In this document: positions 34,324 through 37,712 of the stretch, in pieces
Layout of the letters: the number at the start of each line of letters is the position of its first letter
Position numbering within the stretch: position 1 is the first letter of the stretch
The notes under the pieces: generated by a model
Told to the model about the DNA's origin: nothing
Databases searched by the model: none
The model's input: only the letters and a program-made list of their open reading frames with translations
Made by a program: the position numbers and the translations under genes
Assembly (NCBI GenBank): GCA_003168375.1
Contig: PMSI01000001.1
Span: forward strand, 62,001-126,000
Source of the DNA: Vulcanimicrobiota bacterium
Lineage (GTDB): Bacteria > Vulcanimicrobiota > Vulcanimicrobiia > Vulcanimicrobiales > Vulcanimicrobiaceae
Length of the DNA stretch: 64,000 nt
Direction: 5' to 3'

Positions 34324-35135
34324 CAGCCGCCCTGCACGATGACGCGCTTCGCACCGGCGCGCCACATCAGCGTCGCGACGACCGCGAGCACGGCGAGCCA
34401 GCCCGCCTGGAGGCCGAGCGCGGCGGCGTAGCGCTCGGGCCGGATCACGCCGACGTAGATCAGCAGCGGGGTCGAGAACATCGCCGCGAACGGCAGCGCA
34501 AACGCGATCCTCTGCAGGAACACCGGAAAGATGACCAGCGGGATGATCTCGCCGCCGAAGAGATCGGTCACCCAGGTGACGATCAGTTGGACCGCGTGGA
34601 TCTCGAGCGTCCAGAACGCGACGCAGTTCAGGATGAAGTTGATGCAGAAGCCGACCAGGTACCCGAGGAAGAAGCTCACGAAGAACGTGCCGATCACGAG
34701 CGGCCCGGGCACATCGATGTGCACGATGAAGAGCGCGAGCAGCAGCGACGGGACGATCAGCACCGCGTGGAAGAGCACTTCGCCGCTCCCGTCGGCGAAG
34801 AAGTAGAACGGGACGACGATCGGCTTCATGAAGTCGGTCGCGATGTCACCGGTGTGCAGCCGATCGTGGAGCGCCCGGGTCTGGTCGATGTCCATCACCA
34901 AGCCCATCAGCAGCGCGACGGTCGAGTAGGTAATGATCGCGTGCAGCGGCAGTTCGCTCGGCGCGGCGTTGCGCGCGTAGAGCGCGACCCAGACCATCCG
35001 CAGCAAGTAGACGCGCACCAGCACCGACGCGATGCTGGTGAAGACGTCGAACCGGTAGGTCGCCTCGCGCGCCATCGCCTTCTGCGCGAATTGCACGTAC
35101 GGCTCCAGCCGAAACCGAGGCTTCGCTATGATCAC
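34323..35135 (-). CDS. ABC-2 family transporter permease, second subunit
   Basis: This 270-residue permease has six membrane segments and the equivalent cytoplasmic motif DRLHTGDIATDFMKPI after about 90 residues, marking it as a homologue of the next gene. It begins at ATG 35135 and overlaps the ATPase gene end by four bases. The arrangement (ATPase, permease, permease) and the permease type match the uncharacterised ABC-2 exporters often labelled 'viologen exporter family'. Confidence 0.88.
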   Translation of the reverse strand: MIIAKPRFRLEPYVQFAQKAMAREATYRFDVFTSIASVLVRVYLLRMVWVALYARNAAPSELPLHAIITYSTVALLMGLVMDIDQTRALHDRLHTGDIATDFMKPIVVPFYFFADGSGEVLFHAVLIVPSLLLALFIVHIDVPGPLVIGTFFVSFFLGYLVGFCINFILNCVAFWTLEIHAVQLIVTWVTDLFGGEIIPLVIFPVFLQRIAFALPFAAMFSTPLLIYVGVIRPERYAAALGLQAGWLAVLAVVATLMWRAGAKRVIVQGG

Positions 35136-36157
35136 GACGGCGTGTCATCCTGAGCTTGTCGGAGGGCCGCCCCTTCGTGATAGCCCTCGAGGTAGATGCG
35201 GCGCACGATCGAGTCGATGTCGGGCTCGATGATCGAGACGTCGGTGATCTGGTACCGTTCGGTGACCCGGCGGATCAGCGCCTCGGCGGTCAGCGCGCGG
35301 CGGTTGAAGCGCAGCCGCACCAGGTTGAGCTCGCGGCTCACGACCTCGGCCCCGGCGACAACGAACTCGGGATACGACTCCGCCAAATTCACTACCAGGG
35401 TGCGGTGCGTGCCGTACTCTTCGCGCAGCCGCTCGAGCGAGCCGTCGTAGATCACCTTTCCTTCGTCGATCAGGATGATCCGGCGCGAGAGCCGTTCGAC
35501 GTCGGCTAGGTCGTGCGTGGTCAGGATGACCGTCGTGCCCCGATCGCGGTTGATCGTTCCGATGAACTCGCGAATCGCTTCCTTCGCGACGACGTCGAGT
35601 CCGATCGTCGGCTCGTCGAGGAACACGATCTTCGGATCGTGGAGCATTGCGGCCGCGAAGTCGCCGCGCATCCGCTCACCGAGCGAGAGCTGGCGAACCG
35701 GCGTCGCGAGGAAGCGGTCGAGGTCGAGGATCGCCGCGAAGTGGCGCATGTTCTCGAGGTAGCGCGCCCGCGGGATGTCGTAGATCGAGCGCAGCAGCTC
35801 GAACGACTCGCGCAGCGGAAGGTCCCAATAGAGCTGGCTCCGCTGGCCGAAGACGACGCCGATGTTCGCCGCGTTCGCCATACGGTGCGCGTGCGGCACG
35901 ATCCCGGCGACGCGCAACTGCCCGCCGCTCGGGACCAGAATCCCGGTCAGCATCTTGATCGTGGTCGACTTCCCGGCACCGTTGGGCCCGATGTAGCCGA
36001 CCAGCTCGCCGGGCTCGAGCGAGAAGCTGACGTCGTCGACCGCGACCTTGTCCACGTAGGTGCGGGAGAACAGCGCCCCGACCGCGCCCCAGATCCCCGA
36101 TCCGCGTTCGAGCGACCGGAATACCTTGCGCAGCCCTACCGCCTCGATGATCGCCAT
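35132..36157 (-). CDS. ABC-2 exporter ATPase
   Basis: This protein of about 341 residues has Walker A GPNGAGKST, Q-loop VVFGQRSQLYWDLP, signature LSLGERMR, Walker B IVFLDEPTIGLDVVA and the switch histidine in LTTHDLAD, plus a C-terminal regulatory extension. The GQRSQLWWDLP-like block is typical of ATPases partnering PF06182 permeases. The last residues, LRQAQDDTPS, come from a copy of the dispersed repeat. ATG at 36157 gives the family-like MAIIEAVGLRKVF; a GTG at 36178 is also open. A strongly structured duplicated element lies just upstream on the other strand. Confidence 0.92.
   Translation of the reverse strand: MAIIEAVGLRKVFRSLERGSGIWGAVGALFSRTYVDKVAVDDVSFSLEPGELVGYIGPNGAGKSTTIKMLTGILVPSGGQLRVAGIVPHAHRMANAANIGVVFGQRSQLYWDLPLRESFELLRSIYDIPRARYLENMRHFAAILDLDRFLATPVRQLSLGERMRGDFAAAMLHDPKIVFLDEPTIGLDVVAKEAIREFIGTINRDRGTTVILTTHDLADVERLSRRIILIDEGKVIYDGSLERLREEYGTHRTLVVNLAESYPEFVVAGAEVVSRELNLVRLRFNRRALTAEALIRRVTERYQITDVSIIEPDIDSIVRRIYLEGYHEGAALRQAQDDTPS
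35143..35167 (-). repeat. Dispersed LRQAQ repeat, copy at exporter ATPase end
   Basis: Minus-strand copy with one change (CTCCGACAAG). It encodes LRQAQDD, the last part of the ATPase before its stop. Confidence 0.85.
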
Positions 36158-36204
36158 GCTCGGCGTGCCCTTTCCCACGCGGACCGTACGCCGCCTTTAC
36201 GTTG

Positions 36205-36320
36205 CCTGAGAGGGACGTACCCCGGACGAGGGGAACTCGCGGCGTACCAACAACCGTTGGTCCCAACAGATGCGCCCCTTTTCGGTACGCATCGAGTCTG
36301 ACTAGGCGAGGGGGTGAGAT
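36205..36320 (+). promoter_or_regulatory. Structured leader RNA of unit A
   Basis: Three hairpins can be drawn. One: GGG/CCC around ACGTA (36212-36222). Two: CGAG and CTCG closing a GGGAA loop (36227-36239). Three: ACCAAC/GTTGGT around AACC (36246-36261), inside an outer helix GGCGTA/TGCGCC. The same three are possible in unit B with changed bases. In unit A alone, GATGCG (from about 36270) can instead pair with CGCATC near 36292, which would break the outer helix, so two exclusive folds exist. The leader ends in a strong ribosome binding site. I cannot match it to a riboswitch class I know. Confidence 0.6.
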
Positions 36321-36326
36321 ACGAAC

Positions 36327-36386
36327 ATGGCCGCTAAGAAGAAAGCCCCGAAGAAGAAGCCCAGCAAGAAGGGCAAGAAGAAGTAA
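36327..36386 (+). CDS. Lysine-rich micropeptide A, 19 residues
   Basis: ATG at 36327 starts the peptide MAAKKKAPKKKPSKKGKKK, followed by TAA. A strong ribosome binding site (GAGGGGGTGAG, 36309-36319) is seven bases upstream. More than half the residues are lysine, with Ala, Pro, Ser and Gly between; this is like the tails of histone H1-like bacterial proteins and suggests binding to RNA, DNA or another polyanion, but no function is known to me. It is shorter than usual gene-finding limits. Its own terminator follows 67 bases after the stop, so it is a complete monocistronic unit. The identical copy downstream supports selection for this sequence. Confidence 0.6.
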   Translation: MAAKKKAPKKKPSKKGKKK

Positions 36387-36453
36387 ACCCGTCCCAGACA
36401 GAGATAGAGATAGATCAGGTTTTTCTCAGCCATCATTGCATCTTCGAATCGAG

Positions 36454-36481
36454 GCGCGGCCGGCAACGACCGCGCTTTTTT
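36454..36481 (+). terminator. Intrinsic terminator of unit A
   Basis: A GCGCGG stem pairs with CCGCGC, with an inner CG/CG and a GCAA tetraloop, followed by six or more T. This is a strong rho-independent terminator on the plus strand. Confidence 0.9.
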
Positions 36482-36495
36482 CTATCCCGGTGGCG

Positions 36496-36613
36496 GTCCG
36501 AGAGGGTGGCACCCCAGGCGAGGGGAACTCGCCGCGTATCAACATGCGTTGGTCCCACAGACGCGGTGCTCTTTGGGCCCCGAGTCGAGTCTGACTACGA
36601 GAGGGGGTGAGAT
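36496..36613 (+). promoter_or_regulatory. Structured leader RNA of unit B
   Basis: The three hairpins of unit A recur with different bases: GGGT/ACCC (36505-36515), GGCGAG/CTCGCC closing the same GGGAA loop (36517-36533), and ATCAAC/GTTGGT around ATGC (36538-36553) inside CCGCGT/ACGCGG. Pairs change between copies (for example C-G to U-G in the third stem, and a longer second stem), which supports a real RNA fold. The stretch CGAGTCTGACTA and the ribosome binding site are the same as in unit A. Confidence 0.6.
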
Positions 36614-36619
36614 ACGAAC

Positions 36620-36676
36620 ATGGCCGCTAAGAAGAAAGCCCCGAAGAAGAAGCCCAGCAAGAAGGGCAAGAAGTAA
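36620..36676 (+). CDS. Lysine-rich micropeptide B, 18 residues
   Basis: ATG at 36620 gives MAAKKKAPKKKPSKKGKK and TAA, the same as peptide A minus one lysine. The codons are identical to copy A, including silent positions, while the 5' leader differs at many sites. The ribosome binding site GAGGGGGTGAG is at 36601-36611. It is followed by its own terminator and then the convergent SRPBCC gene. Confidence 0.6.
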   Translation: MAAKKKAPKKKPSKKGKK

Positions 36677-36734
36677 GCCCGACCCCAATACAGATAGATC
36701 AGTTTTTCTCAGTCATCATCCAGATCCCATGAAG

Positions 36735-36763
36735 GCGCGGCCGGCAACGACCGCGCTTTTTTT
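36735..36763 (+). terminator. Intrinsic terminator of unit B
   Basis: Same hairpin as in unit A (GCGCGG, GCAA tetraloop, CCGCGC) with seven T. On the minus strand no T-run follows, so it does not serve the facing gene. Confidence 0.9.
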
Positions 36764-37198
36764 CTATGCCTGCACGGCGTTTTCGGCCGCGCGTTCCGCC
36801 AGTCGTCCGAGGTTCGCCGCCATCCCGCCGGCGATGAGCTCCGCGGCGCGGCGCAGGATCAGTCCGGCCAGCGGACCGCCGGTCCCGATGCGCTGCACGA
36901 TCGCCGTCCCGCTCGCCTGCGGCGCCAGCTCCCAGCGGAAGCGCAGCGCGGCAACCGGACCGAAGGTGACGATTAGGGCCAGCATGCGCTCCGGCACGAC
37001 CGCCTCGATGCGGAACGCCGTCTGCGGGGCTCCTTTGGGCTTCATCGTCAGCAGCGTCCCGGGCGCGAGCGGCCCCTCGAGGGTCATCCATTCGACACCC
37101 TCGTTCCACAGCGACCACCGCCGGCCGTCGAGCAGGACGCCCCACACGCGATCCGGCGGCGCGGTCGAGCTCGCTTCGGCAGTCCGTTCCCAGCTCAT
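36764..37198 (-). CDS. SRPBCC (START-like) family protein
   Basis: This 144-residue protein has the SRPBCC fold pattern: an N-terminal strand WERTAEASSTAPPDRVWGVLLDGRRWSLWNEGVEWMTLEG, a run of strands with TAFRIEAVVPERML and LRFRWELAP, and a long C-terminal helix. Such proteins bind hydrophobic ligands in a closed cavity; many act as polyketide cyclases or lipid carriers, but the ligand cannot be read here. ATG at 37198 with GGAAGAG ten bases upstream is preferred; an ATG at 37216 is also in frame and would overlap the start codon of the divergent gene. Confidence 0.82.
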   Translation of the reverse strand: MSWERTAEASSTAPPDRVWGVLLDGRRWSLWNEGVEWMTLEGPLAPGTLLTMKPKGAPQTAFRIEAVVPERMLALIVTFGPVAALRFRWELAPQASGTAIVQRIGTGGPLAGLILRRAAELIAGGMAANLGRLAERAAENAVQA

Positions 37199-37214
37199 CG
37201 CGAAGTGCTCTTCC

Positions 37215-37712
37215 ATGGACGAGCCGGAGAACCCGATCGTCGCGATGGCAACGAAGCTCCGCGCGCGCCGCGATCTGGGCGCCGCGATCGACTCGGCGAC
37301 CGCCGGCGCGGCGAGCCCGCGCGGCGACGACGCGGAGAGCCGCTTCGCGGCGCTCGCCGACGTCCTGGCAACGGGCACCAAGCGGCTGAACTCGATCCTC
37401 GGGGGCCGCACCGGGGTCACCCTGGTGCGGCTCGAGAACCCGCCGCGGCTGCGGCTGCGCTTCCGCGACAAGCGGATCGCGCTCGATCTCGACGCCGCGC
37501 GTCAACTGGTAATCGTGACCGGCTGCGGTCTGGAGGGCGAGTATCAGTTCCTGGACGCGGACGTGCCGGCTCTGATGAACCTCTCGAAGTTCTCGACCGA
37601 CGCCGGCTACCGCGACGCGTTGACCGGCTCCCAACTCCTCAAGACGATCTCCGACGGCGCCCAGCTTCCCCGCCCGCCGCACCTGGACGGCCAAGGCCCC
37701 TTGAGTTTCTAG
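37215..37712 (+). CDS. Conserved-looking hypothetical protein
   Basis: This 165-residue soluble protein has no family I recognise. The N-terminal half is helical and Ala/Arg-rich; the second half alternates strands (GVTLVRLENPPRLRLRFRDKRIALDLD, then ARQLVIVTGCGLEGEYQFL) and ends with SQLLKTISDGAQLPRPPHL. High third-position GC over the whole length supports coding. The ATG at 37215 overlaps the possible ATG of the divergent SRPBCC gene in CCATGG, leaving no separate promoter space; ATG at 37245 is an alternative. Its stop overlaps the endonuclease III stop by four bases (convergent). Confidence 0.65.
   Translation: MDEPENPIVAMATKLRARRDLGAAIDSATAGAASPRGDDAESRFAALADVLATGTKRLNSILGGRTGVTLVRLENPPRLRLRFRDKRIALDLDAARQLVIVTGCGLEGEYQFLDADVPALMNLSKFSTDAGYRDALTGSQLLKTISDGAQLPRPPHLDGQGPLSF

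What the first reader, a model, noticed from the sequence alone, without database searches (positions are those of the whole stretch)
36204..36766. Tandem structured leaders driving near-identical lysine-rich micropeptides, each with its own terminator
Two units in a row each contain three hairpins, a strong ribosome binding site, an ORF of 19 or 18 residues (MAAKKKAPKKKPSKKGKKK and the same minus one K) and an identical GCAA-loop terminator. The leader hairpins keep pairing while bases change, and the ORF is unchanged. A self-contained, duplicated, highly expressed-looking unit for a tiny polycationic peptide is not something I can match to a described system. Possible roles: nucleic-acid compaction, ribosome or RNA binding, or a regulatory RNA with a short ORF.
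Basis: partly seen in the sequence, partly recalled or inferred. Interest (0 to 1): 0.85.

Follow-up and report, generated by a model that had tools for sequence, protein, structure and literature searches.

The report
Tandem stress-promoter genes for polylysine micropeptides
Two neighbouring mini-genes each appear to make the same 18-19 residue, lysine-packed peptide from what looks like a stress-type promoter, and similar tiny genes, too short for normal annotation, turn up in many unrelated bacteria and some archaea.

Summary
The tandem units are real. Each is a complete monocistronic gene: promoter, 5' hairpin, exceptional ribosome-binding site, 19- or 18-codon Lys-rich ORF, GNRA-loop terminator. 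The most conserved part is not RNA but an ECF-sigma-type promoter, GGAAC-N17/18-CGTT, at a near-fixed distance from the ORF in 20 units of the bacterial family. Hairpin 1 lies upstream of it, hairpin 2 overlaps its -10 box, and only hairpin 3 lies in the predicted mRNA, where it covaries. The peptide is the conserved product: third-position changes dominate, lengths change only by whole codons, and two copies that lost the leader keep SD, ORF and terminator. The locus is divergent to an ABC-2 ATPase in at least eight genera: 17 of the 18 closest ATPase homologues carry it, 0 of 12 paralogues examined. A pattern search found 43 comparable Lys-rich micro-ORFs with extended SD in 32 records from Methylomirabilota/Rokubacteria, Nitrospirota, Chloroflexi, Acidobacteria, Planctomycetes and some archaea, often in tandem. 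Pfam, NCBIfam, PDB, Rfam and searched papers give nothing. Most likely: a stress-inducible, free histone-H1/HU-tail-like polycation binding DNA, RNA or polyphosphate. The gene is well supported; the function is inferred.

The parts
36232..36258 (+). Unit 1 promoter, GGAAC (36232-36236) - N18 - CGTT (36255-36258), ECF-sigma type
   Evidence: Sequence; found in 20 family units with N17/18 and near-constant distance to the ATG
36269..36293 (+). Unit 1 5' stem-loop of the predicted mRNA (predicted start about 36265)
   Evidence: Compensatory changes in relatives; fold -10.8 kcal/mol
36309..36318 (+). Unit 1 extended Shine-Dalgarno AGGGGGTGAG
   Evidence: -12.2 kcal/mol with anti-SD; invariant GGGGGTG in the genus alignment
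36327..36386 (+). Unit 1 ORF MAAKKKAPKKKPSKKGKKK (11 Lys of 19)
   Evidence: Homologous ORFs in 10 of 11 genus genomes and other genera; an in-frame TGA four codons upstream excludes a longer ORF (sequence)
36424..36437 (+). Unit 1 conserved 3' UTR motif TCTCAGCCATCATT
   Evidence: Genus consensus GTCATYATYC; role unknown
36454..36481 (+). Unit 1 intrinsic terminator, GCAA (GNRA) loop, U-run
36524..36550 (+). Unit 2 promoter, GGAAC (36524-36528) - N18 - CGTT (36547-36550)
36560..36586 (+). Unit 2 5' stem-loop
36602..36611 (+). Unit 2 extended Shine-Dalgarno AGGGGGTGAG
   Evidence: -12.4 kcal/mol
36620..36676 (+). Unit 2 ORF MAAKKKAPKKKPSKKGKK (10 Lys of 18)
36707..36719 (+). Unit 2 conserved 3' UTR motif TCTCAGTCATCAT
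36735..36763 (+). Unit 2 intrinsic terminator
35132..36178 (-). Divergent ABC-2 transporter ATPase (DrrA/NodI-like), conserved neighbour of the micropeptide gene
   Evidence: PF00005; 17 of 18 closest homologues have the micro-ORF next door, 0 of 12 paralogues examined

Best explanation
Each unit is a complete single-gene transcription unit for a free polycationic micropeptide. Steps supported by sequence: an ECF-type promoter (GGAAC-N17/18-CGTT), a roughly 60-nt 5' UTR opening with a stem-loop, a near-optimal SD, a 16-23 codon ORF whose Lys-rich composition (not exact sequence) is kept, and a dedicated terminator; gene duplication raises dosage. Inferred: an alternative (stress) sigma factor switches the gene on, the mRNA is stable and heavily translated, and the disordered +10/+11 peptide neutralises and compacts polyanions (most likely DNA, otherwise rRNA or polyphosphate), working like a detached tail of a bacterial histone-H1-like or HU protein.
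For: Peptide-level selection: substitutions at codon positions 1/2/3 are 227/238/482, all 14 genus ORFs are open, and lengths vary only by whole codons. Copies that lost leader and promoter keep SD, ORF and terminator. One relative carries MAAKRKHKHKHKHKSRGKHKGK, so charge is kept although the purine-rich codon tract is not. SD strongest by far against window genes. Promoter in 20 family units, with a predicted 5' UTR of 55-66 nt in 19 of them and 31 nt in one; the same boxes with N16 drive the alphaproteobacterial general stress response (PMC7083833, PMC8103513). A terminator-like hairpin follows nearly all family-level units. In another family of the phylum the ORF lies about 140 nt upstream of an RsbW-like anti-sigma gene, fitting a stress context. 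Several homologues resemble KPAKKAAKKK-type tails of H1/HU proteins (own knowledge).
Against: No expression, translation or binding data. The cognate sigma factor was not found: no PhyR and no matching promoter directly upstream of the ECF genes inspected. Other intergenic GGAAC-N17/18-CGTT sites in the genome gave no obvious stress regulon beyond one AhpC/TSA-type gene. The peptide is patchy: about 10 of 38 genera of the family. H1/HU resemblance is compositional; no family model matches.
Confidence: 0.55

Rival explanations
1. It is an accessory ribosomal micro-protein comparable in size and basicity to eL41, bTHX or bL37, binding rRNA.
For: Extreme basicity, tiny size, very strong SD, wide phylogenetic occurrence.
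Against: Patchy within one family, variable copy number 1-3, drifting sequence, ECF-type rather than housekeeping promoter, no translation-gene neighbours at the window's locus; no PDB sequence match (weak test for such a peptide).
Confidence: 0.12
2. The conserved divergent ABC-2 transporter exports the peptide, or protects against it; it acts outside the cell as a cationic peptide.
For: Strict linkage to one ABC-2 ATPase orthologue across at least eight genera.
Against: No signal or leader-cleavage motif, no hydrophobic residues for membrane activity; in other classes and phyla the neighbours differ.
Confidence: 0.12
3. It is a regulatory or structural RNA that merely contains a short ORF.
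For: Covarying 5' hairpin, conserved 3' UTR motif GTCATYATYC.
Against: ORF kept without the leader; third-position bias; the leader model never hits except upstream of this ORF in 99 family genomes; no Rfam match.
Confidence: 0.08
4. It is a Lys-codon leader peptide of a transcription attenuator.
For: Lys codon runs followed by a terminator.
Against: The next gene downstream is on the opposite strand (36764-37471, -); the units are tandem, each with promoter and terminator; no amino-acid gene follows.
Confidence: 0.02

Closest known systems
Bacterial histone-H1-like proteins and Lys-rich HU tails (AlgP, HupS-type C-terminal tails)
   Same: K/A/P-rich low-complexity polycation; KPAKKAAKKK-like repeats in several homologues; AlgP is linked to polyphosphate granule spacing (PMC9239181, title and abstract seen)
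   Different: Here the 'tail' is the entire protein (11-25 aa as a rule), with no folded domain and no demonstrable homology
Tiny basic ribosomal proteins (eL41, bTHX, bL37, bS22)
   Same: Size range and extreme basicity (own knowledge)
   Different: Arg/Lys mix and conserved sequences there; here almost purely Lys in a 68% GC genome, drifting sequence, patchy, multicopy, ECF-type promoter
EcfG/sigma-ECF promoters of the general stress response (GGAAC-N16-CGTT)
   Same: Both boxes identical
   Different: Spacer 17-18; no PhyR found; sigma factor unidentified

Membership tests
ECF-sigma (EcfG-like) promoter | GGAAC -35 and CGTT -10 boxes at near-fixed spacing and near-fixed distance to the gene | tested here: met
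   20 units, N17/18, predicted 5' UTR 55-66 nt in 19 of 20
ECF-sigma (EcfG-like) promoter | PhyR (of the PhyR/NepR/EcfG general stress pathway) present | tested here: not met
   PF22029 PhyR absent from own genome; hence called ECF-type, not EcfG
ECF-sigma (EcfG-like) promoter | Mapped transcription start | not testable with these tools
   no RNA-seq
Histone-H1-like / HU-tail proteins | Match to a family model | tested here: not met
   Homologous peptides of 20 aa or more: no Pfam or NCBIfam hit; the window's own 18-19 aa peptides fall below the tool's 20-residue minimum
Histone-H1-like / HU-tail proteins | Binds and compacts DNA | not testable with these tools
   needs a binding assay
Ribosomal micro-proteins | Universal single-copy presence in a clade | tested here: not met
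   Patchy, 1-3 copies
Known structured RNA | Rfam covariance model match | tested here: not met
   0 matches at gathering score
Attenuator leader peptide | Co-directional biosynthetic gene after the terminator | tested here: not met
   Downstream gene is on the opposite strand

The most novel reading that the evidence does not exclude
A widely distributed, essentially unannotated class of free polylysine micropeptides (11-25 aa), made in bulk from dedicated and often tandem stress-controlled mini-genes, serves as an inducible polycation for nucleoid, RNA or polyphosphate condensation in many bacterial phyla and some archaea.
Probability: 0.35. Interest if true: 0.85.

Novelty: new variant of a known kind. 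Interest (0 to 1): 0.62.

Why it matters
At 11-25 residues these genes fall below the usual length limits of gene finders, which would explain why nothing describes them. If the reading holds, many bacteria keep a minimal, sequence-degenerate polycation (in this family under alternative-sigma control): an H1 or HU tail without the protein. It makes a clear question testable: can composition alone, without a fold, be the selected property of a gene?

Tried and rejected
MARKK hits of the first pattern are RpoD sigma factors, unrelated. Viral pattern hits are mostly internal Met codons at the C-terminus of a longer Met/Gly/Lys-repeat protein, so not counted. EcfG/PhyR general stress pathway proper: PhyR not found. 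Regulon search with the promoter in the own genome: 65 sites against 29 for the reversed pattern, most inside genes by a home-made gene caller; not informative. ECF autoregulation: no matching promoter directly upstream of ECF genes inspected. PDB sequence search: nothing. Papers printing these sequences: none on a bacterial micropeptide.

Full report
OBSERVATION. The two units at 36204-36766 are real tandem copies: SD+ORF segments 98% identical, terminators identical over 30 nt, leaders about 84%. They are the only two ORFs of 15-40 aa with at least 40% Lys in the 68% GC window, and 20 Markov sequences of equal length gave none. Their SDs pair with the anti-SD at -12.2 and -12.4 kcal/mol; 29 long ORFs of the window average -3.2 and none is as strong. 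An in-frame TGA four codons upstream of the ATG excludes a longer protein. Rfam has no match in the window.

CONSERVATION. DNA and pattern searches find the gene in 10 of 11 genomes of the genus, one to three tandem copies each, in about ten genera of the family, and in two further families of the phylum (f3 of the same class, f11 outside the class). Peptides are 14-23 aa and differ in order but not in kind: MAAKKKAPKKKPSKKGKKK, MAAKKKGGKKKPGKKGGKK, MAMKKAKKKATAKKKK, MAAKRKHKHKHKHKSRGKHKGK. In the genus, differences fall 227/238/482 on codon positions 1/2/3. In G001, units 2 and 3 have lost the leader and promoter yet keep SD, ORF and terminator. So the peptide is what is maintained.

THE 'LEADER' IS MOSTLY A PROMOTER. 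Family-wide, the conserved part of the leader is GGAAC-N17/18-CGTT. It occurs in 20 units, with a predicted 5' UTR of 55-66 nt in 19 of them and 31 nt in one. This is the ECF-sigma type of promoter; alphaproteobacterial EcfG uses GGAAC-N16-CGTT (PMC7083833, PMC8103513). Only hairpin 3 is in the predicted mRNA. Covariation is weak on an unguided alignment, stronger on a model-guided one (10 of 13 pairs of hairpins 2+3 with two-sided changes, 0 of 500 shuffles reaching it; such an alignment leans towards its structure) and visible by hand pairing. The covariance model built from the leader hits only upstream of this ORF in 99 family genomes. The sigma factor is unknown: PhyR is absent and no ECF gene inspected carries the promoter directly upstream.

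GENE NEIGHBOURHOOD. The gene lies divergent to an ABC-2 ATPase. Of the 18 closest homologues of that ATPase, 17 have the micro-ORF next to them (the 18th, G010, has it about 2.6 kb away on the same contig), while 12 paralogues have none. Terminators follow nearly all units of the family.

BEYOND THE PHYLUM. One capped scan of 84,980 species genomes with an SD-ATG-Lys-Lys-stop pattern returned 119 stretches. Among in-frame Lys-rich micro-ORFs 37 of 58 have an extended SD; among other matches 7 of 68 do (odds ratio 15, p 2e-10). Forty-three such ORFs in 32 records were kept, only five of which could be extended by more than 15 residues: Methylomirabilota/Rokubacteria (two or three in tandem), Nitrospirota, Eisenbacteria, Chloroflexi, Acidobacteria, Planctomycetes, Omnitrophota, Brocadiales, Patescibacteria, Nanoarchaeota and others (names from the record titles). 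Whether these share descent with the window's gene cannot be decided from such short biased sequences. In Methylomirabilota and Nitrospirota several sit directly behind an HTH-nucleotidyltransferase (MNT) plus HEPN gene pair (in L094 and L160 the second gene is an open frame without its own Pfam test), in Rokubacteria behind an AbiEi_2-like gene.

MECHANISM. Shown by sequence: independent transcription units, ECF-type promoter, strong translation signals, selection on a Lys-rich composition. Inferred: induction under stress, high abundance, and binding of polyanions by a disordered +10/+11 peptide in the way of H1/HU tails. Ribosomal, exported, RNA-only and attenuator readings are weighed above. 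No expression data are available, so function stays an inference.

Noticed in passing
L082, L148, L163, L182, L094, L160 (genome contigs): Lys-rich micro-ORFs (1-3 in tandem) directly downstream of an HTH-MNT nucleotidyltransferase plus HEPN gene pair (type VII toxin-antitoxin-like) in Methylomirabilota and Nitrospirota; in Rokubacteria (L093, L103, L121) downstream of an AbiEi_2-like gene.
   Followed up: partly
L048, L049, L050 (same phylum, family f11): Micro-ORF (MAAKKAKAKSKKKK type) about 140 nt upstream of an RsbW-like HATPase_c_2 anti-sigma gene.
   Followed up: partly
36424-36437 and 36707-36719: Conserved 3' UTR motif TCTCAGYCATCAT (consensus GTCATYATYC in the genus) between stop codon and terminator; role unknown.
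   Followed up: no
36246-36261 (ACCAAC..CGTTGGT): Inverted repeat overlapping the -10 box keeps pairing in most genus members (compensatory ACCGAC/GTCGGT, ACCGGC/GCCGGT) although it should not be transcribed; possibly an operator.
   Followed up: partly
viral contigs L312-L431: Many viral contigs carry a Lys/Met/Gly-rich repeat C-terminus (..GGMAKKKMMRGGMAKKK) in a longer protein; unrelated to the micro-ORF but abundant.
   Followed up: no
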